64,000 bases of DNA. Origin: Rubellicoccus peritrichatus. Its GTDB lineage: Bacteria; Verrucomicrobiota; Verrucomicrobiia; Opitutales; Cerasicoccaceae. Below the pieces are notes generated by a model. That model was not told the DNA's origin. It did not search any database and was given only the letters and a program-made list of their open reading frames with translations. Location: the NCBI RefSeq assembly GCF_033100135.1, contig NZ_CP136920.1:2909001-2973000 (forward strand), read 5' to 3'. Both the position numbers and the translations under genes were made by a program. Shown piece by piece: positions 36,811 to 55,791 of this stretch (the stretch's first letter is position 1; every line of letters starts with the position of its first letter).

Positions 36811-39800
36811 TTATTGCAGGGGTAGTGGTAAAAGAGCAGTGACCGTTTCACTCTGAAATGTCTTTTTGAGGTCTTCCAGTTCTTTGCGCTGACGCTCTAA
36901 TTCCAGATGAAGCGCCTGCACCTGTTTCATGCCGTGTTGATAGACCAGATTGCTTGCCTTCAGCGCTTTGATCTCAAGTTGCATTTGGGTGATCAACTTC
37001 TGCTGGTAGTCCGCCTGAATGCCCGGGAGACCGACCACGGCGTTTACTTTGCCTTGGCCTGTTCCGTCAAAAGAGGACCATGCGCGACCGATGATCCTGT
37101 TCATGGATGTTAGCGCCAGTTGATCACCAGAAACTGCCACTGCCGTGCCATCTTCATTACCGGAAGGAATCAGGTAATCGCCAATGTCCACTTTCCCAAT
37201 AACACGGACGTCCACCTGGCCCATGAAGCCGGTGATTACGTAGTCTTCCGTGCCTTTGCCTTCGGTCGGCATGTTGCCAACAACGATAGGGTTGGTCGAA
37301 GCGACCATGATCCAGTCGGCGCCATCCGTTTGCCTGGAGACCTCACCGCCAAACACGCCGACGACATCGCCGGGTTCAATGGTTTCATTCAGATCCTTCT
37401 TTGGGAGATGCTCGGCGTAGTCGGCGCCTGAGGTTTCATAAATGACGCTTTGAGTGCCAGACGCCATTTTAACACCACCAATGTAAGAGCCATTCCCCCG
37501 TAAGAAACTAATAAACTGACTTCCGGTTGCCGACCCTGTCCATAAGGCCAGACAGTGCGACAATCCACTCCCCGTCGCACCATTACGAAACGAGACCATA
37601 TGATCGAGAGCGCTTCTTGTGCCTGTAGTTGTTTTCTTGCCACCTGAGACGGTGAATTCGGTAATGGGTGCGCCTCCAATGCCAACGCGGCCTTTTCCAC
37701 TCGTAGTCGAGTCATCATCAGCAGTGTAAAGTATCTGCTTCTTAGTTGTGGTGATTAGCGAACCAGACAAAGATTCATCTTCAAAATAAAGATTCTCTCT
37801 AAGATCGCTTAAATCGACATTACGGGTATTGCCTGCTTCTGTCAGGATCAGAAACCCACTTGAATAACTGAAGTTAGATACCAGTTCATTCGTGCTGCTG
37901 GGGTCGATACTGATCTCATTGCTCAAAGCACTTGCGGTGACAGCGCCATTGGCGATCGCGGCGGCGGTGACCGAGTCATCAGCGAGTGCTGCGGCATTGA
38001 CAGTGCCTGGTGCGAGACTGATCCCCGTCAATAGTGAACCATCTCCGGCAAAGCTGGTCGCGGTTACTGTGCCAACTACTTCAAGCTCTGAACTCGGCGA
38101 ACCACCTGTCCCGATGACCAATTGTTGAGCTCTTAGTAAGCCATTATCATCCATGGAAAACAAGACGTCCGGTGACGCGGCATCTTTGAAACTCAATCCA
38201 GAGTCACCAATCAAAATTTCAGTCGGCTGCAATGAATCAAAATCGGCCAGGTTGACTGAGGTATTGCCGCCCGCATCCGTGATGATCAGTTGACCGCCCG
38301 ATACCTGGAAGCCCGTGACCAATTCGTTGTTCGGATCGGCATCGGCGTCATCGACATTCAGGTCACTCCAGGCAGTTCCATTTCCTGTGGTTGTGAGGAC
38401 CTGACCACTGGCTCCCGCTTGTCGATTGGAATCAAGCAAGCTGCCGGTTACAAAGGCGTCACCGGCAACATGGAGCTCGGCAGCGGGTTGGGTTGTACCA
38501 ATGCCAATACGATTTTCGGCAATAAGATCGACTGGAATGTTTTCCCAAATCTGATTTAGAATTGTAATTGCGTTGTCATCCCGCGCGCTAAGGTAAATCA
38601 AGCCATCTTCGACATCCAGATCGTAGGCAAACTCAAGACGATCGAATCCGTTGCCATCTTTGGCCACGACGAGAGGCTTTGGATTTGATGGATCACTGAT
38701 GTCGATCGCGGTCAGCGCGTCGTCATATAGTGCAGTCACAAAGGCAACATCGCCGACGACCTCTACATTCGCCGCTCCATCCAATGCATCAAAGTCGCCG
38801 ACTTCGTCCTGGGCAACAGAAACCAATGCCGGCGCATCTGGATTGCTGATATCGACTATAGTAAAGGCACCACTGTCCTGAGCGGCAAGGTAAGCGTAGT
38901 TACCAATAACATCGACGTCGAAAAGCCTCTCCAGACTGGTGAAGACTCCGTCACCGTCATATACTTCGGCGCGCAATGCGAGGTCACTCTTATCGCTGAC
39001 ATCAATGATCGTGAGCGCGTTATCAACATAGGAACCGACATATGCCAGATTGCCAACCACCTCCACATCACGCGCGCCCTGAAGGTAATTAAACTCACCG
39101 TCTTCATCTTCTATCCACGAAACAAGTACCGGGGTTGTGGGCGTGCTGATATCGAGGACCAGGAGGGCATTACTTCGAAAAGCAGTCACATAGGCATAAT
39201 CTCCACTTACGAAAACGTCTAACGGCCCATCAAGGAGATTATTCAGTTCAAAACTCTCGATGACGGCGACAGAGGCGGGGTTGTAGGGGTCGCTGACGTC
39301 AATTATGTTAAGAGCGTTATCTCCAAATCCGGCGACATAGATATAATTACCATGCAGAAAAAAGTCTCGGACATCATTCAGCAGGTAGGGTCCACTGTTC
39401 GAGATAATCGCTGCCTCAACGGGACCAACGCCATCCAGGTCACTAACATCGAAAATGTACATTCCCGAGATTCGGGTTAGGACATAGACAAAATCGTCTT
39501 GAACCTCAATGGCTACAGGCTCTCTAAAGTCAACGGAGGCAAAGGAGCCGCTGTAGATTTCTTTAGCCACACTCAGGCTCGCGAGGGTTTCATAGCCTTC
39601 CACGCTTCCGATGTGCAAACCAGCTTCGGGGCTCGCGCCGTTCAGCCCAATGCCCAAGCCCGAACTGCCATCTAAAATAGAACCCACGGTGTTCGAGAGA
39701 TCCACACTCGTCGTGCCGCCGTCGATAGATAACCCATTACCGCTAAGACTCAATGACTGCAATTCGTTGGTCGGATCAACATCAATACCAGCAGCCAAGG

Positions 39801-42800
39801 CACTCGCCGGAATGCTGCCATCTGCGATTGAGACACCATCTAGATTCGTTAAGCCGGAGCCGTCACCCGATATCGCATTTGCGGTAAGTGTGCCATTGGA
39901 ATCAATGTTAATGGTTGGCTCGACATATACTTTTAGATGAGGATTAAAAATAGTAAATAATCCTGTATTATATGATGACCCATACCAGTGGCTTACTGAC
40001 CCCATAGGGTTAACCGTAAGTTGAACCTGCATTTCATCACCAGCTTGAACTTCGATTACCTCATCAAACTGAATCGGATGATAGTCTGAACCTGCTGGCA
40101 CCTGCGACGTCACTTGCCATTGATCCGCATCTCGTGACAAAGTAACATCTAATTCGGTCGCTTCGATAACTTCAAGCTGAGGTTGAATGCTAACCAGTCG
40201 GCCACTGGTCGAAATCGTAAAATTTATGGTAAACGGTATACCTACATTGGCTGGACTAGTAACAGGAGTACCACCCAGTGATTCATGATCGACGTCAAGT
40301 AGCGGCGTGCCAGTTTTAATCACTAAGCCGGAAGACCCATAGGTAATGGTGTTCAATTCGATCCCATCAAGCGTAAGGCCATTCAAATCTACCGTATTTT
40401 GATTGCCTGCTTCTGTGATGGTCAGCTCACTGCCAGTAACGGAAACGCCGTTGATTAACTCATTGGTGGGGTCGGCGTCAGCGTCGTCAGCCGCACCTGG
40501 GGCGAGTGCAAGGGCAGGGATAGTACTCTCGACGATGGCCGTGCCATCGAGTCTGGTCAATCCATAGCCATCACCAACGAAAGCGGCGGAATTCAATTGT
40601 CCGGCTTGCAGAATATTAACCGCTACGACCCCATCAGAAGTGAGCGCCAGGGCTGTTTCATCCGGAACTATATATGTCCTGAAGTGATAATCAATTTCGC
40701 CGAAGCCAGGATTGTCCGGTGCTTCATCATCACTATAATTTGTTCGCCAGCGGAGCTCTGATCCCGACAGGCCGGCACTTACCAGCGTTAATCGTAGGTT
40801 AAGTATTTCTCCCGCCGCAACGTCGATAGCTTCGTTTTCGAAAAGAGTGAAATATCCGTTATGACCAACGGGTATGGTGGCGGTTTGACTATAGACTACC
40901 TGTGCTGATAACTCTCGATTCATGTTCACATCGAGCTCAATCGCAGCAGAATGATCATTCACCAGATAAACTTCTACCTTTGAGTGCTTACCAGTAAAAC
41001 CTGCTGTGAACGTTACTTGGCGCGAAGGTGATGAACCGAATCCTGACGAGAAGAAATCATCGAAACCATATGGGTTATCGGCAGATACATCCTCCTGAGT
41101 ATCCACATCGAGCAACTCGCTCACTTCAGTCGCTTGAAAAGAGACGCCACTTGATTCAATCGTAACCTCTGAAAAATCCAGCGCGTCGACATTCAATTCA
41201 TTCAAGTTGACTGACCAAGTCGTCCCAGCTTCGGTTAAAGCGATTTCGTTGTTGCTGAATGATAATGCAGTGATGACTTCATTGTTGTCGTCATTGACGT
41301 ATGAAGACAGGTCGGCACTGAGTGTCCCACCGGCATCCGTTAGTTGTAATTGGTTATCTGTGATATTGAAGCCGCTAATTAACTCATTGGCTGGGTCGGC
41401 ATCGGCGTCATTTGATACGCCAGCGACCAAAGCACCGGCGGGGATGCTGCCAGCTGTGATTTTGCTGCCATCGAGTGAGTCCAGCTCAAGGCCACCCATA
41501 TCAATGGTGTGGCCCACGCCGGCTTCGGTAATCGTCAGGTTACTGCCCGAGAGTCCAATTGCGGTGATCAGCTCATCGTTGGTGTTATTCACGTAGCTGG
41601 ATAAGTCTACGCTTTGAATCCCGCCGGCATCGGTGAGTTGAAGTGCATCACCATCTAAAGTAAATGCACTCACCAATTCATTGCTGTCACTCGTGTCTAT
41701 TCCGCTCAACCGGGAACCGTCTCCCAGGAACGAACTGGCTGCAATGGCTCCATCTACGTTGAATTCAGTGGCGACCCAATCCAGCGGAGTTAGGGTGGCG
41801 AACTTCAAGTCATTATTTGTGGAATCGAGGTAGCTGAGCACTGGAACGCCACCAGCTATGGCCAGCGATTTCTGTTGGCCAACGATGGTTGCTTCGTCAA
41901 TGGAAGTGAGATCCCAAAAACCAGAAAAGTTCGGAGCTTTGTTGATCGCTATATTGAGTGTGCCACCATCTTGAAAGCAGACAATAACGTGTTGGCTACC
42001 CATTGCAGCCATCGAAACTTCACCAAGGCCCGATCCACCTCTTCCGCTAAAAACGTTATAAGTGGTCCAGCTTCCCTGTCCATTGGGTGCATCATTGATG
42101 GCGAACTTCAGGTCATTATCGAGAAAATAAACGATGGCTGGTTTACCATCAATTACCGCAAGTGCATTATCCTGTGGAGAAGTAGAAGAATCAATCTCAT
42201 CAATCATTTCGATATGCCAGGTTCCATCGCCGTCAACTGAATCGTTAATGGCAAACTTCAGCTCATCGGCGTCTATGTCGCGGTAACTGATTGCAGGATA
42301 GCCATTCATGGAGGCGAGTGAAATTGGCGCACGGATCTCACCATCAGAATCAACGGTTACCGTAGACCATGCTCCCGAGCCATCAGAGGCAGCGTTAATT
42401 GCGAAAATCAAGGCATCATCTTTAGTGAAGGCGAGAGCTGGCCTCCCGTCGATTTCTGCCAGCGATACCATCGACTCATAAGCGCCATCGACATTGACCG
42501 TCGATCTAATCCAAGTTCCCGAACCATCTGCTTCTACATTGGTCGCAAACTTCAGGGTCGAGTTGGTATCGTCCCGATAAACGATAAATGGCAAACCATT
42601 CACCACTGCCATTTCGCTATGCGAACCGACTTGGCCAATCCAATCCACGTAGACAATAGTCCAATCTCCGGAGCCATCGGCTTCGGCGTTGATCGCAAAT
42701 TTCAAATTTCCGCCGGTGTTCTCGTAGTAGCTAATAGCAGGTTTCCCATCGAGCACCACCACCGAGTTATAGTCTCCGACTTCTACCGATGAGTCGACAA

Positions 42801-43689
42801 CCTGAGAGTCAAAACTTGACTGAACTGGACGACTAGCGGTAAATCCAGTTGTGGGATCCGGATTAGGAGTCACTGTCCATTCACTTGATGCATATGAAAG
42901 TGTTTGGGGTGAAGCGAAAGGGACATCAACCATCCAAACGGCGTCTCTCTCATCTGATGTACTTCCTAAATCAACGTTCAGCACGCCATCGACTAGACTG
43001 CCTTCAGTCGTATCACTCGCTAAATGATTACCAGAGATCGCACCGTCAGCAATTACAGTATTGGTTACAGCACCGTCAGCGAGTGCAGTATTATCAACTG
43101 CGCCATTTGCCAGAGCACTTGCTGATACCGTATTTGCTTCAATCTTGGTTCCGTCTAGTGAAACAATTGCACTTCCCGGAATAGAATTGGTACCGATGTC
43201 AACCTGGGAAATATTGATCGCAGCGGAAGAATGCAAAGCCAGTGCGGTATCTGCCAGCCCACTGCGTACCGAAAAAGCCGTATTATTTACCGGTTGGTCA
43301 GGGAACTGTTCGAAGGTGAGCCCGTCCTCACTGTACCACATACGTATGTAGGTGCCTGACTCATCCCACATTGTATGGACTGATTGAGGCAATTCAGCCA
43401 TATTCGGGTGGCTGGTGTCTCCCAAGTTGACAGTGAAGAGGCCCTGGGTCACTACCACTGTAATGTGATCATCCGGTTCCCCGAGGGGCAGTTCAATATC
43501 CGGAGAGTTCATCCAGACAACGGTGGCGCCATCTGTTTCAACAATAGCAAATTTAAAGTAGCGGTCTCCAGTCGGCAGAGTTGCATCTTTGGAGATACGT
43601 CCGCTGTAGTTAAATGATTCTTTGATGCTTCCGCTGAGGGGAAGCGCTGCAATCAGTAGAGTGTAGAGGCATACACTTATTTTGTTCAT
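36811..43689 (-). CDS. giant exported fibre-like protein, paralogue 1 (propeller and LVIVD repeats)
   Basis: The 2292-residue protein opens with a signal peptide (MNKISVCLYTLLIAALPLSGS) and a YSGRIS...FKFAIVETDG domain (residues 24-145) like the YQGRL-type N-termini of bacterial tail-fibre-domain proteins. Repeats follow: linker units of the DADADPTNELI...LTEAG...VDL kind, about seven propeller-like units (GKPAISYYENTGGNLKFAIN type, roughly residues 290-635), and LVIVD-like repeats (YVLTRISGMYIFDVSD type, roughly 1375-1710). Near residue 2075 comes a conserved module (GADYAEHLPKK, GDVVGVFGGEVS, STNPIVVGN, IIGRAWSS, VVGLPGIQADYQQ), then a coiled coil to the end. It is likely exported and fibrous; the role is unknown. 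It is the third and last gene of a run of three paralogues. Confidence 0.85.
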   Translation of the reverse strand: MNKISVCLYTLLIAALPLSGSIKESFNYSGRISKDATLPTGDRYFKFAIVETDGATVVWMNSPDIELPLGEPDDHITVVVTQGLFTVNLGDTSHPNMAELPQSVHTMWDESGTYIRMWYSEDGLTFEQFPDQPVNNTAFSVRSGLADTALALHSSAAINISQVDIGTNSIPGSAIVSLDGTKIEANTVSASALANGAVDNTALADGAVTNTVIADGAISGNHLASDTTEGSLVDGVLNVDLGSTSDERDAVWMVDVPFASPQTLSYASSEWTVTPNPDPTTGFTASRPVQSSFDSQVVDSSVEVGDYNSVVVLDGKPAISYYENTGGNLKFAINAEADGSGDWTIVYVDWIGQVGSHSEMAVVNGLPFIVYRDDTNSTLKFATNVEADGSGTWIRSTVNVDGAYESMVSLAEIDGRPALAFTKDDALIFAINAASDGSGAWSTVTVDSDGEIRAPISLASMNGYPAISYRDIDADELKFAINDSVDGDGTWHIEMIDEIDSSTSPQDNALAVIDGKPAIVYFLDNDLKFAINDAPNGQGSWTTYNVFSGRGGSGLGEVSMAAMGSQHVIVCFQDGGTLNIAINKAPNFSGFWDLTSIDEATIVGQQKSLAIAGGVPVLSYLDSTNNDLKFATLTPLDWVATEFNVDGAIAASSFLGDGSRLSGIDTSDSNELVSAFTLDGDALQLTDAGGIQSVDLSSYVNNTNDELITAIGLSGSNLTITEAGVGHTIDMGGLELDSLDGSKITAGSIPAGALVAGVSNDADADPANELISGFNITDNQLQLTDAGGTLSADLSSYVNDDNNEVITALSFSNNEIALTEAGTTWSVNLNELNVDALDFSEVTIESSGVSFQATEVSELLDVDTQEDVSADNPYGFDDFFSSGFGSSPSRQVTFTAGFTGKHSKVEVYLVNDHSAAIELDVNMNRELSAQVVYSQTATIPVGHNGYFTLFENEAIDVAAGEILNLRLTLVSAGLSGSELRWRTNYSDDEAPDNPGFGEIDYHFRTYIVPDETALALTSDGVVAVNILQAGQLNSAAFVGDGYGLTRLDGTAIVESTIPALALAPGAADDADADPTNELINGVSVTGSELTITEAGNQNTVDLNGLTLDGIELNTITYGSSGLVIKTGTPLLDVDHESLGGTPVTSPANVGIPFTINFTISTSGRLVSIQPQLEVIEATELDVTLSRDADQWQVTSQVPAGSDYHPIQFDEVIEVQAGDEMQVQLTVNPMGSVSHWYGSSYNTGLFTIFNPHLKVYVEPTINIDSNGTLTANAISGDGSGLTNLDGVSIADGSIPASALAAGIDVDPTNELQSLSLSGNGLSIDGGTTSVDLSNTVGSILDGSSGLGIGLNGASPEAGLHIGSVEGYETLASLSVAKEIYSGSFASVDFREPVAIEVQDDFVYVLTRISGMYIFDVSDLDGVGPVEAAIISNSGPYLLNDVRDFFLHGNYIYVAGFGDNALNIIDVSDPYNPASVAVIESFELNNLLDGPLDVFVSGDYAYVTAFRSNALLVLDISTPTTPVLVSWIEDEDGEFNYLQGARDVEVVGNLAYVGSYVDNALTIIDVSDKSDLALRAEVYDGDGVFTSLERLFDVDVIGNYAYLAAQDSGAFTIVDISNPDAPALVSVAQDEVGDFDALDGAANVEVVGDVAFVTALYDDALTAIDISDPSNPKPLVVAKDGNGFDRLEFAYDLDVEDGLIYLSARDDNAITILNQIWENIPVDLIAENRIGIGTTQPAAELHVAGDAFVTGSLLDSNRQAGASGQVLTTTGNGTAWSDLNVDDADADPNNELVTGFQVSGGQLIITDAGGNTSVNLADFDSLQPTEILIGDSGLSFKDAASPDVLFSMDDNGLLRAQQLVIGTGGSPSSELEVVGTVTATSFAGDGSLLTGISLAPGTVNAAALADDSVTAAAIANGAVTASALSNEISIDPSSTNELVSNFSYSSGFLILTEAGNTRNVDLSDLRENLYFEDESLSGSLITTTKKQILYTADDDSTTSGKGRVGIGGAPITEFTVSGGKKTTTGTRSALDHMVSFRNGATGSGLSHCLALWTGSATGSQFISFLRGNGSYIGGVKMASGTQSVIYETSGADYAEHLPKKDLNETIEPGDVVGVFGGEVSRQTDGADWIMVASTNPIVVGNMPTEGKGTEDYVITGFMGQVDVRVIGKVDIGDYLIPSGNEDGTAVAVSGDQLALTSMNRIIGRAWSSFDGTGQGKVNAVVGLPGIQADYQQKLITQMQLEIKALKASNLVYQHGMKQVQALHLELERQRKELEDLKKTFQSETVTALLPLPLQ

Positions 43690-43757
43690 GGTAGTTCACT
43701 TGGGAGGGTTTATTTATCATAGTTATACGAATAATGACTTTAAATATGAGGTATGAG

Positions 43758-45923
43758 TTATCGAATTTCTGTATTATTGTAATGTGTCGTCGTTAAAGTG
43801 GTTATTGCTTCGACTTTTATTAGCGATTCCAGTTCAGCCAGGCGTTTATCCTGATCAACGAGCTCCTGTTGAACTTTTGCCAATTCCTTTTGCGCTCCTT
43901 TGAGCACATCGATTTCTTGCTGCATCCTGGCGATCAACTTCTGTTGATAGTCTGCCTGAATTCCCGGGAGCCCAACTACTGCATTGACCTTGCCTTCGCC
44001 TTCGCCGTCAAAGGATGACCAGGCGCGACCGATTACCTTGTTCAGATCAACCATCTCGTTCTGTTCAAGTGGAACTGCTCGTGCGGTGCCATCTTCACGG
44101 CCAGATGCGATGAGGTAGTCGCCAATGTTTACTTCACCAAGCACGCGCACATCGACTTGCCCCATGAAGCCGGCAATGACGTAATTGTCAGCACGCTTAC
44201 CTTCGGCCGGCATGTTGCCGACAACAATCGGGTTGGTCGATGCGACCATGATCCAGTCTGCGCCCTCGGTTTGCTTCGAGACTTCGCCGCCATAAATGCC
44301 GATGACGTCGCCTGGATTGATAACTTCGTTTGGAGTTTTCTTCGGCAGATACTCGGCGTAGTCAGCGCCCGCGCTCTCGTAGATAACGCCACTACCGGTC
44401 CCCAGAATGCCGCCAAGATAGGCATCTTCTTCCTTATAAAAACTGACGAAGTTGGTATTCGTAGCACTGTTGTTGGACTTCAGGGCTAACACATTCGTGA
44501 CGGCATTTTCATACGTAGACGAATTGTTTATGAGTGCAACATGATTGCCTAAATGTGGAGTTGGGCTTCCAACTGCTGCAACATTTGTCTGTTCGACGTG
44601 AAGGGTATGAGTTGGCTTTATGTCTCCAACCCCAAATCTTCGATTATGTCCATCAAAAGTGATATAATCAGTTGGTGTCACAGGTGCATGCGGTACTTTA
44701 ACCCTATCCGCATTCCAGATGGTTACTTTTCCATTGTAGAAACGAATTCCGTCTCCATCGGCACGTTCGTCGATTAAGTAGAAGCGATCATCACTAGTAT
44801 CAAAGTAAGCGTTTCGCGAAATGTGATAATTCCCAATCATGCCATCGTCGGTTTCGGATGATTGGATGTAGAAATCAGGATCGACGTTGTAACCGGCTAA
44901 TGAAGGCGAAAGGATAATGGCGCCATTTCGTGCAGGGTCATGAATCAAAAGGCGTCCTTGGACCTCCAGTCGTTCCTTCGGTGTTTCGAGGCCTGTTCCT
45001 ATACCGACAAATCCTCCGGCGCTTGAGCCATTTGAAGGTAATGCCACTTCCGCTGTGTAAATTGCGACATCAGCTTCGGAAGTGTTTTCATCTATGCTTT
45101 TTAAATAATGCAATCTATCATGTTGGAAGGCTTCCAGGCTGACTGTATGTATGGTTCCTGCTTCGGTAATATTCAGGATATTGCTAAAACCTGAGGAAGA
45201 ATCCAGCAGACTGAAATCAACGATCTGCTGATCGTCTTCTCCGCCGACCACGCCGGTAAATCCGCTTGTTGCGGCGCCTATGGGCAATACGTAAGTCTCG
45301 CCTGCATCTGACAGGATGAGGGAACCATTTTCGTAGCTAAAGCTCTGCACTAATTCATTCGTTGAATCAGCATCGGCATCATCACTGGCGCCCGTTTCCA
45401 ATGCAGCTGCTGGAATGCTACCAGCGGTTACTTGAGAGCCGGATATGGTTGCTGAAGGTTCGAGAGCCAGAGTGGAATTGGCCAGACGGCTTCTTACCGC
45501 GAAAGGCATGCTGTTGATTCGCTGATTCGGGAATTGCTCATAGCTTTCGCCATCACCGCTATACCAAACCTTTATGTAGATGCCGGATTCGTTCCACAGG
45601 TCATTGGAAGGGGAGGGTAATGATGCCATGTTTTCATGATTCGCACTATCACCAAGATTAACGGAGAAAAGCCCCTTGTTTATCTGAAGGACTACGGGAG
45701 CATCAGGTATGCCATCAGTCGGGTCTATATCCGCCGAGTTCATCCAGGCAATCGTTTCGCCATCGGTTTCGACTATGGCGAATTTGAAATAGACGGTTCC
45801 CGTGGGTAGTATGTCCTGGTCAGAAATACGTCCGCTGTAATTGATGTATGGATTAGCCAAGGCGTTGAGTGATAGCGTGATTGCTATGAAGGTTGATGTT
45901 ACGAGAAGTGCGTTTTTTGTCAT
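43758..45923 (-). CDS. exported fibre-like protein, paralogue 2 (short form)
   Basis: The 721-residue protein is the compact version of its two giant neighbours. It has a signal peptide (MTKNALLVTSTFIAITLSLNALA), the same N-terminal domain (NYSGRISDQDILPTGTVYFK), one DADADSTNELV linker block, and a middle section with ERLEVQGRLLIHD and IIL-type strands. It lacks the propeller and LVIVD blocks. The C-terminal module (GADYAEYLPKK, GDVIGIYGGEVSKQTEGADWIM, VVGNMPAEGK, IGRAWSSFDGEGEGKVNAVVG) begins about residue 511 and is the best preserved part, followed by a coiled coil with heptad-like EIDVLKGAQKELAKVQQEL. It lies 68 bases upstream of paralogue 1, so the three are probably co-transcribed. Confidence 0.85.
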   Translation of the reverse strand: MTKNALLVTSTFIAITLSLNALANPYINYSGRISDQDILPTGTVYFKFAIVETDGETIAWMNSADIDPTDGIPDAPVVLQINKGLFSVNLGDSANHENMASLPSPSNDLWNESGIYIKVWYSGDGESYEQFPNQRINSMPFAVRSRLANSTLALEPSATISGSQVTAGSIPAAALETGASDDADADSTNELVQSFSYENGSLILSDAGETYVLPIGAATSGFTGVVGGEDDQQIVDFSLLDSSSGFSNILNITEAGTIHTVSLEAFQHDRLHYLKSIDENTSEADVAIYTAEVALPSNGSSAGGFVGIGTGLETPKERLEVQGRLLIHDPARNGAIILSPSLAGYNVDPDFYIQSSETDDGMIGNYHISRNAYFDTSDDRFYLIDERADGDGIRFYNGKVTIWNADRVKVPHAPVTPTDYITFDGHNRRFGVGDIKPTHTLHVEQTNVAAVGSPTPHLGNHVALINNSSTYENAVTNVLALKSNNSATNTNFVSFYKEEDAYLGGILGTGSGVIYESAGADYAEYLPKKTPNEVINPGDVIGIYGGEVSKQTEGADWIMVASTNPIVVGNMPAEGKRADNYVIAGFMGQVDVRVLGEVNIGDYLIASGREDGTARAVPLEQNEMVDLNKVIGRAWSSFDGEGEGKVNAVVGLPGIQADYQQKLIARMQQEIDVLKGAQKELAKVQQELVDQDKRLAELESLIKVEAITTLTTTHYNNTEIR

Positions 45924-45964
45924 ACTTTATTGAATGGTTAACTGATTTGATTCCGTAGCTAGGC

Positions 45965-48900
45965 TCAATAATATTGAATATTTTTTATCTTTAATGTTGG
46001 GTAGTTTACTTGAGTGTTAGTGTCGGGATTGAAGTTATCATCGATGATCAATTCCAGTTGATTGATGCGCTTGTTCTGGACTTCCTGATTTCTTGCTAAA
46101 TCGTTGTTTTTGTCCGTGAGAGCATCGATTGTCCGTTGCATCGAAATAATTCTCTGCTGCATCCGAGTGTTCTCCTGTTGCATCTGGGAAATCAATTCCT
46201 GCTGGTAATCTGCCTGAATGCCGGGCAGGCCGACCACGGCGTTTACTTTGCCTTCACCTTCACCGTCAAAGGATGACCAGGCACGGCCAATGATTTTATT
46301 CAGATTAACTGTATTAACTCGTTCGATTGGAATTGCGCGCGCCGTGCCATCTTCATGGTCGGATGGAATAAGATAATCACCAGTTGTTACCTTGCCAATC
46401 ACGTGCACCTCAACTTGCCCTATGAAGCCCGTGCTTACGTAATCCTCTGCGCCCTTGCCCTCGGCCGGCGCGTTGCCGACGACAATAGGATTGGTCGAAG
46501 CGACCATGACCCAATCCGCGCCTTCTGTTTGTTTGGATACATCACCACCATAAATGCCGATGACGTCACCAGGCTCAATGACTTCGTCCAGATTCTTCTT
46601 GGGGAGATACTCGGCGTAGTCGGCCGTGCCGCTTTCAATGGTTATAGCTCCGCCATGTCCTCGAATGCTGCCGGCAATGCCATTCTTATGCCTGAAGGTA
46701 ATGTAGTTTGTATTCTGTCCGTCTGACGCTGTTTCCAGGCAGAGTACGTGCGTGTCCTGGCTTGTCGTATTGGCTTCGTTAATGATGCGAGCCATGTGAA
46801 CACCCGGCAGCGGGTCACTATCATTTAAGGTCGAAGGGTGACTGGCTTGAACTTCAAGAAATGTCACAGGAGCCGCCCCGTTTCCTATGTTGACCCGTTT
46901 GTTTGTTCCATCAAAAACGACGTACTGTTCAGGACTAAAAGTCGAACCACTTTGATCACTTCCACTCGGAAGATAACCATAAATCCGCATGCTTCCCGAT
47001 TGCATGGTGATTCCATCGACGCTTTCGGTAGGGTCGATCAGAGCATAGCTGCCGCTGTCAGGATCATAATAGGCGTTGCGAGACAGATGATAGTGCTGAC
47101 CACTAGCAACCAACGATGACTGCAGATTGAGTTCACCATCAACACGATATCCACCAGTGGAAGGCGAAAGAGTCAGGCCGGCGGGTTTACCTGGATCGCG
47201 TACGAGCACACTTCCCTTAACCTCCAGGCGTTCATTCGGTGTGTCCGTCCCGGTGCCAATGCCAACAAAGCCGCCTGGACTGGTTCCAGACGTCGAAGTC
47301 GTTACTTCCTCGGTATAAATTGCGACTTCGCCATTTATCGCATCCGCATCGTTATAGTGCAGGCGGTCCAGCTCCAGACTGCCCAAATCAATCGAGGAAA
47401 TACTAGATTGGCCTTCGGTAATTTGAAGATTGTTTTTTAAGCCAAAATTCTGGGCCGCCAATGCCAGGTTAGAGATCAGCTCGTTCGTATTGTCGGCATC
47501 GATTGATGAGGCTAAAGCGCTAGACGGGATCGTGCCGTCGGCGATTGAGGTGCCATCCAGATTGGCTAAACCCGAACCGTCGCCAACGAATGACCCGGCG
47601 GCAATCGTTCCTTCGACGGAGAGCTCGGCTGCGGTCCAGTCCAATGGTGGAAAACTGGCAAATTTCAAATCACCGGCATCACCATCGTAATAGCTTATGG
47701 ATAGATGTTCTCCTGCCAGCGCCAATGAGGTATATGCGCCGACGTTACCTGTCGTATCAACCGCTTGGACCGTCCAGTTTCCCGTTCCATCGTCAGTGCT
47801 ACTGAATGCAAACTTCAGATCCTCGTTAGTCTCATCATAGTAACTGATAACCGGAAGGCCATCAAAGGAAAAGAGTGAGGCATAAAGACCGACGGTATTC
47901 GTGGCGTCAACTGTTACGATTGTCCAGTTTCCGGTTGCATCAGTGGCGTCACTAATCGCGTATTTCAGATCGTCATTGGTATCATCATAATAACTGATTG
48001 CGGGATAACCATTGAACGATGTGATCGAGGTATGCTTACCAACAATTCCGCCCGTATCGACGGCCTGTTTTGTCCAGGTTCCGGTTCCATCGGCTGCCGT
48101 ACAGGTCGCAAAATACAAATCTTTAGTCTCAGCCTCTAGTACTGTAGATTGGTTATGACTCTTGGTGCCATCCTCAAAGTAGCTCACAACCGGCAATCCG
48201 TTCAGGTCCGCCAGCGAGATATGTCCTCCACCTGGACCGGCGATAGTTTGGGTCGCTGCCCAGCTTCCAGTGCCATCCGTTGAGCCGTTCACTTTGTATC
48301 TTAAAAAGTTGTTCAAATCTCTCTGGTATGCGACGGCTGGATACCCGCCAATGACGGCCAGCGACACGCTAGAACCAACGCTGAAGCGATAATCAAGGAT
48401 TTCTATCGTCCATGTCCCAGACCCATCCTCGTTACTGGCAATCGCGAATTTCAGGTCTGCGGCAGTCGCATCATAGTAAGCAATCGCTGGACGACCGTCC
48501 ACCTCGGCCAGAGAGCACTCCTGGCCAACATCATTGACAGAATCATCAACTGTCACCGTAGTCCAGGAGCCGGAACCATCAGCCCTGCTGTTGATGGCAA
48601 ATTTCAGATCGCCATTCGTCTCGTCGTAGTAACTTATTGCCGGATAGCCATTAATCATCGCCACGGAGCTGTGTTGGCCAACATCATCAATATTATCTAC
48701 GGTTTGCTTTGGCGTCGCATTGGTAGCGGTAAATCCGGTGGCAGGATCGGCATTCGGCGTCAGGATCCAGCTATCCGACGAATGGCTCAGCATCGGGCCT
48801 TGGTTCAAGGCAGGATCAAAAGTGAAGGAAAGCGTCACCGAGTCGTCGGCATTGAAACTGAGAACGCCATCCAAAAATGTCCCGGTAAGATAACCACTCG

Positions 48901-51900
48901 CTAGCTGATTTCCAGTAATTGTATTATCTGAAATCGCTGCGCCATTGAGATTCGTCAGGTCCGAGCCATTGCCCGAGAAGCTGGTGGCAGTCACAGTGCC
49001 GTCAGAATCAATTACCAGATGGTCGATGGAATGCGGTGTCACATAGGTTTCGAGGAAAAAGTCGTAATCGGCGTTGATCGAACTCGTTCCCCGTGTGTAA
49101 AAGTCGCCAATACCGTAGAGCCAATGAGTTTGTGAACTATTACCAACATTGCTGTAAAGCGCGACAGTATACACTTCGCCTTTCGAAACGTTAGCGTTTG
49201 AAAAGAGAAATGTGTAAGCTCCAGTGCCTCCTGGGACCATTGATATGATATCATGGGCAATAGTAAGTCCACTTGTGCCGTCACCTGCATAAATTTTCAT
49301 CTGTATTTGATCACCCACCAGGTGATTGTTATTCACTAGGTAAGCTCTTGCTTGATCCAGCGATCCAGTCATGCCAGCGGTAAAGGTTTGGAGCTTCTGA
49401 TTCGTTTCATCTCCCAATACGCTGTCGGGATTCGTGTAAGAATCTGCTGCTACGATGTTCTGGTCCAGGAATGACTCATTAGCAGTGTTCTCTTTGGCAA
49501 TCGTAAAGCCATTGTCATCAAAATGCACCTCGCTGAGACGAAGCGTTTCGATCTGCACAGAATCCAGCTCAATTGAATGTGTGGTCTCATCTTCTTTGAT
49601 ACTGATTATGTTGTTCGAGATAGAAAACTCTGTGATCCGTTCGTTGTTGGGATCGGCGTCTGCGTCGTCGATATTGATGCCAGTTAGGGCAGAACCGTCG
49701 CCCGAGAAGCTCGTGGCCTTTACTGTACCAACTACTTCAAGTTCTGAGGAAGGGGACTCCGTCCCAACACCGAGCTGATTCATGCTGACAACGCCATTGG
49801 CATCAGCGGAAAGGGTTTTGAGATCACTCACGACATAGGCCCTGAGATTGAAATCCAGAAGTATGTTGCTTGAAGAAACACCATCGCCGTAAAGATCACT
49901 GGTTGATCCCCACCATTGAAGCGATTGGCTTATTGCTGAGTCATCGAATGTCAGATGGATGGTTAATGGATCGTTCGCCTGTACAATGGTTGTTCCAGCG
50001 CTAATGACTTCAACATGGCCGCTTGCTCCAACGGGCAAGCTGAATGGGGTCTGGCTCAGTGGCGTCTTTCCGTCAATTCCTTCACCAGAGTAGAGATAAG
50101 TTGTGCCGGTGATAGCACCTGATTGCAAGATGTCTACCATCTCGACTTCAACTCGTGACAAGATGCCATCTGAATTGACTTTGAAGCTCTGCCACCAGTC
50201 ACCAATTGGTGATGCTCCTGATAGCTCTAAGCCGTCTATATCAACATCCAATAATTCTACTGAAGCAGGTGATTTAAAAGCAAAACCTTCATTACTATAG
50301 TTGATTTCATCCAACTCTAGTGATTGCACATTACCGTTCAAATCAATCGTGTGTGTGTGTCCACCTTCTGTGAGAAAGATCTGACCATCAGTAATCGAAA
50401 ATGAGTTGATCCTTTCATTGCTGGGATCGGCATCGGCGTCATCGATATTGATGCCAGTCAGGGTTGAACCGTCGCCAATGAAAAAGTCAGCGGTGATGGC
50501 ACCAATGACATCGAGCGCCGAGCTGGGAGAACTGGTCCCAATGCCAAGTTTGTTCGTGGACAAGGAACCATCGGAAGCAATAACTAATGGGGCAGCATCC
50601 GGTATCATGTAGGTCAAAACATAGAAGTCGGCGTCTTCATTTGAAACTGCGTATCCGCCAGAATAGGAACCTTGATCATTCCAGTGCCAAGTAACTTCGC
50701 TTCCGGTTAGTCCGGAGGAAGTCATTTCGACTGTTAATGCCAGTTCGTCTCCTGCATCTATCGTGATTGCTTCGTTTTCGAAAAGCGCAATGAATCCCGT
50801 ATGACCCAATGGGAGTGTAAAGCTATGATTATAGAGAAACACTTCAAGGCCTTGATGATACAGCGAGATGTTAAATTCAACGTCAGCAGTATGTAGGTTT
50901 TCCAAAAATACTTCGACTTTCGACAATTGACCGTCGATTCCGATAGTGAAGGATTGGGCCCTGGACATTCCTATAGCAGGTAGCTCGGGAAGTAGCGAAA
51001 AGTTATTATATGGGGCGCCTATAGAGTTATTACCCGTTTGGCTTTCAAGCCTTCCCCGGGTGTCCTGGTCTAATATCTCAACCACAGTCGCAGTCTCGAA
51101 AGATAGACCGTTCGCGCCTATAGTCGCCTCAAGAAACTCTAATGAGTTGAGGGTGAGGCCGTTTAGCTCAGCTGTGCGCAAGACGCCATCCTCCTCAAGG
51201 CGCAACTCACTACCAACTAACTCAAAATTGGTAACGAGCTCGTTAGTTGGATCCGCGTCGGCATCATTCAAGTTGCCTTCTTCAAGAGCGGACACGGGGA
51301 TCGTTCCATCAGTTATAGCTGAGCCATTCAGGTTCGTTATGCCAGATCCATCTCCAGCCAGTGCGTCTGCGGTAATCGTTCCAATAACCTCAAGTGCGGA
51401 GCTTGGAGAGTCAGTCCCAATGCCCAGCTTGATTGCAGATAATGAACCATCTGCGCCCAAAAACAAAGGGTCTGCTTCAGGGACAACATAGGTCAAAATG
51501 TGAAAATCGACATTCTCATCAATATTGGAGCGTCCAGCAAAATAGCTTCCGTTCTCATTTAAACGCCAAGCAGCCTCAGCTCCGGTTAGTCCGGATGAGG
51601 TCATTTCGATTGCAAGGACTATCTCATCGCCCGCGGCTACTTCTATCACCTCATTTTGAAATAGCGCAATAAACCCAGAGTGACCAACTGGTAGCGTAAA
51701 AGGCTGATTGTAGACAACTGATTCTAGTCTGGAACTATATAGCACAACATTGAAATCAATGTCGCTCGTTGTATGTTGGTTACTTAAATATGCTTCGACC
51801 TTGGATAGTTGTCCTGCTATCCGAGGGCTAAATGACTGAGCCCTCGCCATTCCCAATTCCGGTTGTTCGGGAATCAGTGCAAAGTCATGATGTGATACAT

Positions 51901-52729
51901 TATTAATATCGACTTCTCCTTGGGTATCTTGGTCCAAAATTTCGGTCTCTGTTACAGTCTTGAAAGAAAGACCATTGGCTCCGATCGTTGCCTGGGAAAA
52001 TTCCATTGAGCTCAAGCTCAACCCATCCAAATCGACAACATAGTCTGCAGTTGCCTCACTCAAAGTCAGTTCGCTGCCTACTAGCTCAAAACTGGCAATG
52101 AGTTCGTTGCTGGGGTCGGCATCAGCGTCATCGGCGGCGCCTGATTCTAATGCTGTGGCGGGAATTGTGCCGTCCTGAATCTTGCTGCCGTTAAGGGAAA
52201 TGAGTACATGGCCCGGAATTGTGCCTGACTGAATGTTTAGTTGCGAAGCCTCAATGATCGCGGAAGAATGCAAATCCATGGCTGAATCTGCCAATCCACT
52301 TCGGACGGCAAAAGGCACATTGCTTATTGGCTGGTCAGGAAAAAGTTCAAAAGTATTACCGTCCTCACTGTACCACATGCGTATGGCTGTGCCTGAAGCA
52401 TCCCATATTGTATGGACTGATTGAGGCAGCTCAGCCATATTGGTGATGCTGGTGTCTCCCAGGTTGACTGTGAAAAGGCCTTGAGTTACTTCCAGAGTAA
52501 CGGCATCATCCGGCTGTCCGTCTATGGGGAAATTCACATCCGGGGAGTTCATCCACGCGATGGTGGTTCCGTCGGTTTCAACAATAGCAAATTTAAAGTA
52601 GCGGTTTCCGGTCGGCAGAGTGGAATCTTTGGATATACGTCCGCTATAGCTAAATGATTCTTTGATGCTTCCGCTGAGGGGGAGCGCTGCAATCAGTAGA
52701 GTGTAGAGGCATACACTTATTTTGTTCAT
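45965..52729 (-). CDS. giant exported fibre-like protein, paralogue 3 (propeller repeats)
   Basis: The 2254-residue protein has a leader almost identical to that of paralogue 1. The N-terminal domain is followed by about four units of roughly 190 residues (NELI...LVGSELTLSEA...GLSFKTVTETEILDQDTQG, then a jelly-roll-like SFSPRIAGQLSKVEAYL stretch). Next comes a block of about eight propeller-like repeats (GYPAISYYDETNGDLKFAIN, roughly residues 1340-1700). A region with FVGIGTGTDTPNERLEVKG follows. The C-terminal module (TADYAEYLPKKNLDEVIEPGDVIG..., VVGNAPAEGK, IGRAWSSF) begins about residue 2030 and leads into a coiled coil. It is the first gene of the three-gene run and would be transcribed from the AT-rich gap upstream. 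No LVIVD block is seen. Confidence 0.85.
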   Translation of the reverse strand: MNKISVCLYTLLIAALPLSGSIKESFSYSGRISKDSTLPTGNRYFKFAIVETDGTTIAWMNSPDVNFPIDGQPDDAVTLEVTQGLFTVNLGDTSITNMAELPQSVHTIWDASGTAIRMWYSEDGNTFELFPDQPISNVPFAVRSGLADSAMDLHSSAIIEASQLNIQSGTIPGHVLISLNGSKIQDGTIPATALESGAADDADADPSNELIASFELVGSELTLSEATADYVVDLDGLSLSSMEFSQATIGANGLSFKTVTETEILDQDTQGEVDINNVSHHDFALIPEQPELGMARAQSFSPRIAGQLSKVEAYLSNQHTTSDIDFNVVLYSSRLESVVYNQPFTLPVGHSGFIALFQNEVIEVAAGDEIVLAIEMTSSGLTGAEAAWRLNENGSYFAGRSNIDENVDFHILTYVVPEADPLFLGADGSLSAIKLGIGTDSPSSALEVIGTITADALAGDGSGITNLNGSAITDGTIPVSALEEGNLNDADADPTNELVTNFELVGSELRLEEDGVLRTAELNGLTLNSLEFLEATIGANGLSFETATVVEILDQDTRGRLESQTGNNSIGAPYNNFSLLPELPAIGMSRAQSFTIGIDGQLSKVEVFLENLHTADVEFNISLYHQGLEVFLYNHSFTLPLGHTGFIALFENEAITIDAGDELALTVEMTSSGLTGSEVTWHWNDQGSYSGGYAVSNEDADFYVLTYMIPDAAPLVIASDGSLSTNKLGIGTSSPSSALDVIGAITADFFIGDGSTLTGINIDDADADPSNERINSFSITDGQIFLTEGGHTHTIDLNGNVQSLELDEINYSNEGFAFKSPASVELLDVDIDGLELSGASPIGDWWQSFKVNSDGILSRVEVEMVDILQSGAITGTTYLYSGEGIDGKTPLSQTPFSLPVGASGHVEVISAGTTIVQANDPLTIHLTFDDSAISQSLQWWGSTSDLYGDGVSSSNILLDFNLRAYVVSDLKTLSADANGVVSMNQLGVGTESPSSELEVVGTVKATSFSGDGSALTGINIDDADADPNNERITEFSISNNIISIKEDETTHSIELDSVQIETLRLSEVHFDDNGFTIAKENTANESFLDQNIVAADSYTNPDSVLGDETNQKLQTFTAGMTGSLDQARAYLVNNNHLVGDQIQMKIYAGDGTSGLTIAHDIISMVPGGTGAYTFLFSNANVSKGEVYTVALYSNVGNSSQTHWLYGIGDFYTRGTSSINADYDFFLETYVTPHSIDHLVIDSDGTVTATSFSGNGSDLTNLNGAAISDNTITGNQLASGYLTGTFLDGVLSFNADDSVTLSFTFDPALNQGPMLSHSSDSWILTPNADPATGFTATNATPKQTVDNIDDVGQHSSVAMINGYPAISYYDETNGDLKFAINSRADGSGSWTTVTVDDSVNDVGQECSLAEVDGRPAIAYYDATAADLKFAIASNEDGSGTWTIEILDYRFSVGSSVSLAVIGGYPAVAYQRDLNNFLRYKVNGSTDGTGSWAATQTIAGPGGGHISLADLNGLPVVSYFEDGTKSHNQSTVLEAETKDLYFATCTAADGTGTWTKQAVDTGGIVGKHTSITSFNGYPAISYYDDTNDDLKYAISDATDATGNWTIVTVDATNTVGLYASLFSFDGLPVISYYDETNEDLKFAFSSTDDGTGNWTVQAVDTTGNVGAYTSLALAGEHLSISYYDGDAGDLKFASFPPLDWTAAELSVEGTIAAGSFVGDGSGLANLDGTSIADGTIPSSALASSIDADNTNELISNLALAAQNFGLKNNLQITEGQSSISSIDLGSLELDRLHYNDADAINGEVAIYTEEVTTSTSGTSPGGFVGIGTGTDTPNERLEVKGSVLVRDPGKPAGLTLSPSTGGYRVDGELNLQSSLVASGQHYHLSRNAYYDPDSGSYALIDPTESVDGITMQSGSMRIYGYLPSGSDQSGSTFSPEQYVVFDGTNKRVNIGNGAAPVTFLEVQASHPSTLNDSDPLPGVHMARIINEANTTSQDTHVLCLETASDGQNTNYITFRHKNGIAGSIRGHGGAITIESGTADYAEYLPKKNLDEVIEPGDVIGIYGGDVSKQTEGADWVMVASTNPIVVGNAPAEGKGAEDYVSTGFIGQVEVHVIGKVTTGDYLIPSDHEDGTARAIPIERVNTVNLNKIIGRAWSSFDGEGEGKVNAVVGLPGIQADYQQELISQMQQENTRMQQRIISMQRTIDALTDKNNDLARNQEVQNKRINQLELIIDDNFNPDTNTQVNYPTLKIKNIQYY

Positions 52730-53801
52730 GGTAGTTTTCTTCGTAATATATCAGTTTCATTTTCTATTGTATTATTAAGGGCTTGCCCTGAAGGTGCTCA
52801 CGCACCCTGGTTTTGATCATTGTATGGTTTGGTTATCAGGTTGTGTATGTAGGTATGGGTTGAGGTAGTGTTGCTGCCTGGTTGCTATTTGTTTAGTCAA
52901 GCTGACCTGGGCAGGTTGTATAACTGAAGTTGTTTAGGTCTTGAGTTCTTTTTCTCAGGAAAAGTTATACTTTTTTATGAGAAAAACTGAATTATGTGAT
53001 TTGAGGAGCAGTTGCGGGGAGGGAATTATGAGGTTTTAAATTAATATATGTAAATAGAAAAATTCTATAAAAGATTTTTGAATATATTTTGTAATACTAA
53101 TCGAAGATTGGTCTGTTGTCTTGAGATCCTGCCATAGGGGTGTGGGGTTAGTTATATGCAATATTTGTCAGCATATACCAAAGTCTTCTATTGATAAAAA
53201 TTTTAGTTAAACTTTTTTTGCTATTATAACATCTCCAAGATGAATGTAGCATGAATCCAAGTAAAATTCCGAAATTATGCTATAAATAACTGATATTTAT
53301 GTGAAATGATCGTATCTGTCTATATGCTCTGGATGTTTAGAAAGGCGCACTATTAGTCATCATGCAAACTAATGAAAATTAAGAGACTGAGATGAATATT
53401 GCTCATTCATGTTAAATTCATCTTTTTGTTCTACTTTTTTAATAGACCGAGCATTGCTATTATGAAACTTTGATCAGTAGATGTTTCTGGATTCGACCGT
53501 GAATTAGAAAAAGTGATAGGAGTGGTAACTTTGCATCTCCTATTAAGACGGTTCGGTCACCTGGAATTGTTTCCAGGCAGTGCATTCAAATGAACGCATC
53601 CGGAAATTCTTGCCGGCCTTTAGCCGAAAATCTATTTTCTCTGCTTAGCAGGCCTTGTTTTGTTTCACTTGGAAGCCTGTATCGTGAGAAAGACCAGCTT
53701 CGGCTTCACGTTCTGCAATTTGTGAAGAAACTGCCTGGACTCAAAGAGCCTCAAGCCTGAATGAGGTATTTGGCGCTTACCAGGCAGTCCAATGGCCCTG
53801 T
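52730..53801. other. AT-rich gene-poor region upstream of the giant protein operon
   Basis: This is the longest gap in the window (1072 bases). The part from 52740 to about 53500 is strongly AT-rich and has no plausible gene. It must hold the promoter of the giant operon. From about 53520 composition returns to normal: a hairpin CCTGGAA/TTCCAGG at 53560-53577, the 9-mer CCAGGCAGT at 53573 and 53780, and its complement at 53730 frame a 56-codon frame (53590-53760, ending KKLPGLKEPQA) of doubtful reality. Confidence 0.6.
52778..52806. promoter_or_regulatory. two adjacent small hairpins in the leader of paralogue 3
   Basis: GGTGC/GCACC with a TCAC loop (52793-52806) and AGGGC/GCCCT with a 2-base loop (52778-52789) lie 49-77 bases before the start codon, in the position of the 5' untranslated mRNA. 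They may modulate translation; no riboswitch class is matched. Confidence 0.35.
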
Positions 53802-54623
53802 CTACCTTTTCTCGGCGACAACGACACCATAGCCAATGAGGCCGCGATCCATGGCTTTGCGCATGCCTTTAATCGCACTTAGCAAACCGAGTGCATCGCT
53901 TCCGAGTTCCAGAGCCAGTTGCAGGATTGTTGGTGTCTGTGTGATGGAAATACCCTCGTCCCATGTTTTACGGGTGGCGTTGGCGATGTCTTCTGTGGAT
54001 ATGACATTATAGCCACTTTCTTCGAACCAGTTAACGTAGTTTTTGACCGAGGCAACATCCGGCATGAGCATGCCTTCAAGTACGGGGTCAACATACTTGC
54101 GTTTGTCTTTTTCTGAGACATCGGGAGCAATAACCCAGTCAGCGAGGAGAAATCTGCCCCCTGACTTGATGAGTCGTGGAGAGTTGTTGAGAAATCCATG
54201 TTGGTTGGGTAAATGTCCAAGAACACCTACCATCCAGAGAAAATCAAAAGGTTCGTCGAACGTCACAGTGTCTGCGTCGGATACTTTAAAAGCCACTTCC
54301 ACGCCTGCTTGCTCCGCATGCTGTTGTGCAATTTCCACCTGGACGGAGCTCAAGGTAATTCCTGTCATATGACAGCCCAGGTGCCTGGCTAGCCAGACTG
54401 AAGTTGCACCCATCCCACAGCCTATATCCAGGCCACGCTTGCCCTGGGGAATCTGAGCACGTTTTGCAAGGTAGGCGACGAGCTTCTCCTGGGCAATTTC
54501 TTTGGTTTCGTCGCCATGCTCGTAATAACCGTCGTGCAGATGTTCGCCCCACATATCGCGAAAGTGCGGTGAGAGTGAGTCATAGAAGTCACGAATTCGG
54601 TTTTTTATAGCAATATCTGTCAT
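53802..54623 (-). CDS. SAM-dependent methyltransferase, probably polyketide-tailoring
   Basis: The 273-residue class I methyltransferase has the AdoMet motif LDIGCGMGATSVW (65-77) and the layout of the tocopherol/cyclopropane-type C- or O-methyltransferases (MTGITLSSVQVEIAQQHAEQAG; WMVGVLGHLPNQ; SGGRFLLADWV). It lies 36 bases downstream of the type III polyketide synthase gene on the same strand, so its likely substrate is the polyketide made by that enzyme. Whether carbon or oxygen is methylated is unknown. It is the last gene of the run. Confidence 0.87.
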   Translation of the reverse strand: MTDIAIKNRIRDFYDSLSPHFRDMWGEHLHDGYYEHGDETKEIAQEKLVAYLAKRAQIPQGKRGLDIGCGMGATSVWLARHLGCHMTGITLSSVQVEIAQQHAEQAGVEVAFKVSDADTVTFDEPFDFLWMVGVLGHLPNQHGFLNNSPRLIKSGGRFLLADWVIAPDVSEKDKRKYVDPVLEGMLMPDVASVKNYVNWFEESGYNVISTEDIANATRKTWDEGISITQTPTILQLALELGSDALGLLSAIKGMRKAMDRGLIGYGVVVAEKR

Positions 54624-54659
54624 GAGAGGAAGTTTTTGAAGTGAAATATGAGAACTGGC

Positions 54660-55751: not shown

Positions 55752-55791
55752 AAAGAGATCAGGATAGGGTGAAAAATGTTAAAATATGAAT

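What the first reader, a model, noticed from the sequence alone, without database searches (positions are those of the whole stretch)
36811..52729. Operon of three tandem exported fibre-like paralogues, two of them above 2200 residues
Seen: three same-strand genes separated by 41 and 68 bases. All have a signal peptide, a YSGRIS-type N-terminal domain, DADADPTNEL-type linkers, and a closely conserved C-terminal module (GADYAE...STNPIVVGN...GRAWSS...GLPGIQADYQQ) that leads into a coiled coil. Known: YQGRL-type N-terminal domains occur in bacterial proteins with phage-tail-fibre-like ends. Inference: this is a surface fibre or adhesin set made in one transcript, with short and long members mixing or competing. 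I know of no described system with this layout.
Basis: partly seen in the sequence, partly recalled or inferred. Interest (0 to 1): 0.85.

Follow-up and report, generated by a model that had tools for sequence, protein, structure and literature searches.

The report
Bacterial fibres with phage-like self-cleaving chaperone
A marine Verrucomicrobium makes three tandem secreted fibre proteins that end in the same kind of trimer-forming, self-cutting chaperone domain that Bacillus phage phi29 uses on its tail spikes, on a front end related to the adhesive fibres of the predator Bdellovibrio.

Summary
The three ORFs are real: 2254, 721 and 2292 aa, same strand, gaps of 41 and 68 bp, signal peptides, shared N-terminal domain and C-terminal module. 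The C-terminal module is the phage tail-spike intramolecular chaperone domain Peptidase_G2. A 36-sequence profile finds phi29 gp12 in the PDB (E=5e-5), and the top two Foldseek hits of the model are phi29 gp12. The D and E of DYAE (D692 and E695 in phi29) are invariant, and the phi29 released fragment starts at that D. A long coiled coil follows. The N-terminal domain is distantly related to the MAT (mosaic adhesive trimer) domain of Bdellovibrio: 10 of 11 members match, best E=1.4e-6, below NCBI's cut-off. The same genome has nine such genes: five with G2 tips, two with S74 chaperone tips and two with another tip, so tips have been swapped. The family is patchy in Verrucomicrobiota, but the G2 module occurs in several other phyla, often in tandem. 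Best reading: trimeric, modular surface adhesion fibres that mature by phi29-type autochaperone cleavage. Surface location, ligand and actual cleavage are inferred. It is a new variant of a known kind. No evidence supports the 'mixing or competing' idea.

The parts
45965..52729 (-). Fibre gene 1 (P0003, 2254 aa): signal peptide, MAT_N-like domain, four jelly-roll repeats, propeller-like repeats, G2 chaperone, coiled coil
43758..45923 (-). Fibre gene 2 (P0002, 721 aa): short member, same N- and C-terminal modules, no jelly-roll or propeller repeats
36811..43689 (-). Fibre gene 3 (P0001, 2292 aa): two jelly-roll repeats, propeller-like repeats, five LVIVD repeats, G2 chaperone, coiled coil
52280..52729 (-). 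P0003 signal peptide and MAT_N-like N-terminal domain (residues 1-150)
45474..45923 (-). P0002 signal peptide and MAT_N-like N-terminal domain (residues 1-150); Bdello_MAT_N E=4.2e-5
43240..43689 (-). P0001 signal peptide and MAT_N-like N-terminal domain (residues 1-150)
45968..46621 (-). P0003 Peptidase_G2-type chaperone plus coiled coil from D2037 (predicted released fragment, 218 aa)
43761..44363 (-). P0002 Peptidase_G2-type chaperone plus coiled coil from D521 (predicted released fragment, 201 aa)
36814..37422 (-). P0001 Peptidase_G2-type chaperone plus coiled coil from D2090 (predicted released fragment, 203 aa)
51479..51973 (-). P0003 jelly-roll repeat 1 (modelled, pLDDT 82)
50600..51109 (-). 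P0003 jelly-roll repeat 2
49826..50287 (-). P0003 jelly-roll repeat 3
49034..49510 (-). P0003 jelly-roll repeat 4
40663..41148 (-). P0001 jelly-roll repeat 1
39916..40329 (-). P0001 jelly-roll repeat 2
47660..48697 (-). P0003 repeats of about 45 aa (VDGRPAISYYDDTNxDLKFA type), beta-propeller-like by inspection; related to P0001 residues 285-640
   Evidence: propeller fold not modelled
41770..42837 (-). P0001 repeats of the same propeller-like type
   Evidence: propeller fold not modelled
38560..39492 (-). P0001 LVIVD repeats (PF08309, E=1.9e-32; edges approximate)

Best explanation
These are three modular, trimeric surface fibres (MAT-like adhesins) made from one tandem gene cluster. Each chain is exported by its signal peptide. 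The N-terminal MAT_N-like domain would sit at the cell surface. A beta-structured shaft carries jelly-roll and propeller-like modules that could bind glycans or other surfaces. The C-terminal Peptidase_G2-type domain, with its coiled coil, would register three chains, act as intramolecular chaperone for the shaft, and then cut itself off just before the Asp of DYAE, leaving a mature homotrimeric fibre. Shown here: signal peptides, domain homologies, invariant D and E, the predicted fold, and swapped tips among nine paralogues. Inferred: trimerisation, cleavage, surface location, adhesion (perhaps to algal surfaces) and co-transcription.
For: ORFs, spacing, signal peptides. Peptidase_G2 in P0002 (E=2e-5 whole protein; 27.9 bits over the 25-bit cut-off for the C-terminus alone) and in 31 of 36 relatives. 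A 36-row profile finds phi29 gp12 (6qz9 E=5e-5; the released fragment 3gqh begins at the D of DYAE; the premature form 3suc carries Q in place of E); profile A1 also finds the chaperone domain of tailspike Dpo31. DYAE is invariant in 36 of 36. AlphaFold core pLDDT about 95 followed by a 65-residue helix; the top two Foldseek PDB hits are 3suc and 3gqh; phage preneck appendage and tail-fibre models among the viral hits. phi29 gp12* ends at residue 691 (PMC6542822). N-terminal domain: Bdello_MAT_N matches in 10 of 11 members, best 1.4e-6. Own genome: nine N-terminal-domain genes, five G2 tips, two S74 tips (PF13884 E about 1e-14; one also with YadA_head, a trimeric fold), two with another tip. 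The G2-tipped L021_7849 has an N-terminal domain closer to differently tipped L022 (54%) than to window members (32-38%).
Against: The residue before the scissile bond is A, G or E in all 36 relatives, Ser in phi29; if that Ser is needed, the domain would be a chaperone that stays attached. The Bdello_MAT_N score (23.4 bits for P0002) is well below the curated 60. Pfam Peptidase_G2 scores for full-length P0001 and P0003 are weak (E=0.046 and 0.0043). Trimer state was not modelled. No anchor or secretion partner was found beside the window cluster. The jelly-roll model gives only generic hits (best E=1e-4) that mix capsid, baseplate, esterase and CBM domains, so the ligand is open.
Confidence: 0.7

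Rival explanations
1. Same trimeric fibre and same chaperone fold, but no autocleavage: the G2 domain and coiled coil remain as a permanent trimerising cap at the fibre tip and may themselves be the binding head.
For: Ala/Gly/Glu instead of Ser before the Asp in all 36; non-S74 MAT tips stay on the fibre (PMC10769870); P22 tailspike has a proposed uncleaved auto-chaperone (PMC4690869); in some Bacteroidota 130-335 further residues follow the G2 domain.
Against: D and E invariant across phyla; E is replaced by Q in the premature phi29 structure, which suggests that E matters for the cut; full-length tailspike Dpo31 also has Ala before DYAE, its cleavage state not checked.
Confidence: 0.27
2. 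Extracellular matrix, sheath or appendage building blocks rather than adhesins: the propeller-like and jelly-roll modules are structural spacers.
For: Large, acidic, repeat-rich proteins; several paralogues in one genome; no ligand identified.
Against: Domain order and swapped tips parallel the MAT adhesins; modules vary among paralogues as expected for binding heads.
Confidence: 0.18
3. Remnant prophage or phage-derived tail fibre genes.
For: C-terminal fold and sequence shared with phage tail spikes.
Against: Signal peptides; neighbours are chromosomal metabolic and transport genes; no relative in viral contigs, one weak match among 50,697 phage records; many G2 relatives in bacterial genomes have signal-peptide-like N-termini.
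Confidence: 0.04
4. Long and short members form mixed or competing heterotrimers.
For: G2 cores 70-76% identical among the three.
Against: Shafts differ in length by about 1500 residues and coiled-coil sequences diverge; no data for mixing.
Confidence: 0.06

Closest known systems
MAT (mosaic adhesive trimer) fibres of Bdellovibrio bacteriovorus (PMC10769870)
   Same: Signal peptide, homologous beta-rich N-terminal domain of about 130 aa, long fibre, several paralogues in one genome with exchanged C-terminal tips, some with S74 self-cleaving chaperone.
   Different: Window members end in a G2-type chaperone with coiled coil, not S74 or the reported non-S74 tips; two of them are about twice as long as typical MATs, carry jelly-roll and propeller-like modules, lie in tandem, and come from a Verrucomicrobium in which predation is not known to me.
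phi29 gp12 preneck appendage / Peptidase_G2 (PF11962)
   Same: C-terminal domain sequence, fold, invariant D and E (D692, E695), position at the end of a beta-structured spike.
   Different: Secreted by a bacterium; Ala instead of Ser before the Asp; C-terminal coiled coil of about 65 residues; only 13-17% identity in the fold alignments.
S74 / ICA chaperones (endosialidase, T5 pb1, GA-1 gp12, MYRF)
   Same: C-terminal trimerising autochaperone, with a C-terminal triple coiled coil in MYRF; two S74-tipped paralogues exist in the same genome.
   Different: No PF13884 match and no Ser-Lys dyad motif at the cut in the window proteins; the phi29 domain is structurally different from S74 chaperones (PMC4690869).
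YadA-type trimeric autotransporter adhesins
   Same: Trimeric surface adhesin idea; one paralogue (L021_1398) has YadA_head repeats.
   Different: No YadA membrane anchor found in the window proteins.

Membership tests
MAT fibres (Bdellovibrio) | Conserved beta-rich N-terminal domain of about 130 aa after a signal peptide | tested here: met
   Homology by HMM: Bdello_MAT_N matches 10 of 11 members, best E=1.4e-6; P0002 aligns to profile 5-146 of 162
MAT fibres (Bdellovibrio) | NCBIfam NF053851 curated cut-off (60 bits) | tested here: not met
   P0002 N-terminus 23.4 bits, so not filed as a Bdello_MAT_N subfamily member
MAT fibres (Bdellovibrio) | Repertoire of paralogues with swapped C-terminal tips, S74 and non-S74 | tested here: met
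   Nine genes with three tip types in this genome; N-domain similarity does not follow tip type
MAT fibres (Bdellovibrio) | Trimeric beta-helix or prism shaft | tested here: inconclusive
MAT fibres (Bdellovibrio) | Surface location and prey or glycan binding | not testable with these tools
   Needs microscopy or binding assays
Peptidase_G2 (phi29 gp12 chaperone) | Pfam PF11962 match at the C-terminus | tested here: met
   P0002 C-terminus 27.9 bits against cut-off 25; 31 of 36 relatives match at E<=0.01; full-length P0001, P0002 and P0003 are below the cut-off
Peptidase_G2 (phi29 gp12 chaperone) | Asp and Glu of the DxxE cleavage motif | tested here: met
   DYAE in 36 of 36; aligned with D692 and E695 of gp12
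Peptidase_G2 (phi29 gp12 chaperone) | Ser before the scissile bond (as in phi29; whether it defines the family is not known to me) | tested here: not met
   A in 24, G in 9, E in 3; whether Ser is required could not be checked (primary paper not held)
Peptidase_G2 (phi29 gp12 chaperone) | Fold | tested here: met
   Foldseek top hits 3suc E=5e-5 and 3gqh E=3.4e-4, probability 1.00
Peptidase_G2 (phi29 gp12 chaperone) | Autocleavage after trimerisation | not testable with these tools
   Needs expression
Peptidase_S74 | SDxxxK dyad / PF13884 | tested here: not met
   No PF13884 match in the three window proteins; present in two paralogues elsewhere in the genome
Trimeric autotransporter adhesins | YadA membrane anchor | tested here: not met
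   No such Pfam match in the three proteins
Prophage tail fibre | Phage gene neighbourhood, no signal peptide | tested here: not met
   Signal peptides; flanking genes metabolic or transport

The most novel reading that the evidence does not exclude
A phi29-type (aspartate/glutamate, not Ser-Lys) self-cleaving chaperone is a general maturation device of exported bacterial surface fibres in many phyla, exchangeable with S74 and uncleaved tips on one MAT-like chassis, with several fibres laid out in tandem.
Probability: 0.5. Interest if true: 0.62.

Novelty: new variant of a known kind. Interest (0 to 1): 0.48.

Why it matters
It extends phage-fibre-like adhesins from a bacterial predator to a marine, apparently alga-associated Verrucomicrobium, and shows two structurally different phage autochaperone types (S74 and G2) used as alternative ends on the same bacterial chassis within one genome. 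That gives a testable case of tip swapping and of how very long secreted trimers fold outside the cytoplasm.

Tried and rejected
Prophage origin: rejected on signal peptides, neighbours, and absence from viral contigs. Single-sequence PDB search with P0002 gave only chance hits; the profile was needed. Direct Pfam G2 search of the genome found nothing at E<=0.001. N-terminal profile against the PDB: nothing, as the MAT paper also states for its domain. The non-S74, non-G2 tip of L022 has no PDB relative by sequence. Promoter and terminator scans: uninformative. The primary phi29 gp12 paper is not held, so the role of Ser691 could not be read. A literature search for MAT-type fibres with this chaperone in Verrucomicrobiota found only the Bdellovibrio paper. 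The companion gene was followed only far enough to show its association.
Full report
OBSERVATION. The three ORFs exist as described: minus strand, 45965-52729 (P0003, 2254 aa), 43758-45923 (P0002, 721 aa), 36811-43689 (P0001, 2292 aa), in that transcriptional order, with gaps of 41 and 68 bp. All begin with a signal-peptide-like segment without lipobox and have no other membrane-like stretch. The C-terminal cores are 70-76% identical, the N-terminal domains 52-81%, and the shared parts show up as long DNA repeats. The cluster lies in a 5.8-Mb single-contig genome. One of its family relatives (G007) matches Cerasicoccus frondis by contig (contig of 272,928 bases).

C-TERMINUS. Pfam gives Peptidase_G2, the intramolecular chaperone / autoproteolytic domain of phage tail spikes, for P0002 (27.9 bits, over the cut-off of 25, when the C-terminus is scanned alone) and for 31 of 36 relatives. 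A profile of 36 relatives finds phi29 gp12 in the PDB (E=5e-5), its released chaperone fragment 3gqh, whose chain begins exactly at the Asp aligned with DYAE, and its premature form 3suc, in which the Glu of DxxE is replaced by Gln. The mature phi29 spike ends at residue 691 (PMC6542822), so the scissile bond precedes this Asp. All 36 relatives keep DYAE. AlphaFold gives a confident beta domain (pLDDT about 95) followed by a 65-residue helix; the first two PDB fold matches are 3suc and 3gqh, and viral matches include preneck appendage and tail-fibre proteins. The one departure is the residue before the cut: Ala, Gly or Glu, never Ser. Cleavage is therefore likely but unproven.

N-TERMINUS. The 150-residue YSGRIS / YQGRVS domain matches NCBIfam Bdello_MAT_N in 10 of 11 members tested (best 1.4e-6), well below that model's strict cut-off. 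In Bdellovibrio this domain directly follows the signal peptide of all 21 MAT fibres, which end in S74 chaperones or in diverse adhesive tips (PMC10769870). It is thus homologous but outside the named subfamily.

MIDDLE. P0003 has four and P0001 two copies of a jelly-roll domain, modelled with pLDDT 82; fold hits are generic (viral baseplate and capsid domains, esterase accessory domains, carbohydrate-binding modules). Both long proteins carry propeller-like repeats by inspection, and P0001 also LVIVD repeats. P0002 lacks these modules. Shaft motifs of the IGTxxPxxxLxV type are enriched.

REPERTOIRE. The genome holds nine genes with this N-terminal domain: three in the window; three in a second cluster (L021), of which two have G2 tips (72-bp gap) and one S74; and singles with S74 (L023) or with another, unidentified tip (L022, L024). 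N-terminal similarity does not follow tip type (among the genome's own paralogues, L021_7849 with a G2 tip is closest to L022, which has the other tip), which indicates tip swapping as in MAT fibres.

DISTRIBUTION. The N-terminal domain was found in 55 of 388 sampled Verrucomicrobiota genomes and the G2 tip in 5; in the family, 3 of 10 genomes have the N-terminal domain. The G2 module occurs in 32 loci from Verrucomicrobiota, Bacteroidota/Ignavibacteria, Cyanobacteria, Proteobacteria, Margulisbacteria, Eisenbacteria and others. Tandem copies recur: Cerasicoccus frondis (L040), Saprospiraceae (L065), Flavobacteriales (L069), Ignavibacteriae (L060), UBP8 (L047/L053). No relative came from viral contigs and one weak match from phage records.

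MECHANISM. Most likely: Sec export; three identical chains registered by the coiled coil and G2 domain; folding of the trimeric shaft from the C-terminus; self-cleavage before DYAE and loss of a 201-218-residue fragment; display through the N-terminal domain. Separate homotrimers are more likely than mixed fibres because shaft lengths and coiled coils differ. Adhesion is inferred from MAT fibres and from the modular binding-like domains; the porphyranase-like gene 9 kb away suggests a red-algal niche but does not link the fibres to it.

VERDICT. Real, well conserved in its modules, and largely explained: a new variant of MAT-like trimeric adhesion fibres that uses the phi29-type chaperone.

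Noticed in passing
own genome, L021 5865-6872, L023 2675-3655, L024 7216-8175 and the gene ending at L021 19460-19999; relatives L039 545-1216, L026 2280-2921, L035 2224-2853, L028 286-1368: A small secreted companion family sits directly beside most of these fibre genes: all four strong copies in the genome adjoin a fibre gene, and more adjoin fibres in other genomes, but none adjoins the window cluster. It could be an anchor or assembly partner.
   Followed up: partly
window 61443-63422 and 63448-63858: Beta-porphyranase-like gene (Porphyrn_cat_1, BPA_C) and an ORF matching a GH2 C-terminal domain, pointing to red-algal polysaccharide use.
   Followed up: no
window 53802-56379: Type III polyketide synthase next to a CMAS-like methyltransferase and a cobalamin adenosyltransferase, upstream of the fibre cluster; an MMPL exporter lies downstream at 34302-36482.
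   Followed up: no
window 43498-43689 and 52538-52729: The first 192 nt of the first and third fibre genes are 91% identical, more than the rest of the shared regions, suggesting recent duplication or gene conversion of the signal peptide region.
   Followed up: partly
window 52730-53800: AT-rich 1-kb intergenic region without ORFs of 60 aa or more upstream of the cluster.
   Followed up: no
L022 3077-8173 and L024 1503-7061: Two more fibre paralogues share an unidentified C-terminal tip (ending in ...IRIRSxNGNxQNxxFxFxAIG); no Pfam match to the tip was found in either, and the L022 tip has no PDB sequence match.
   Followed up: partly
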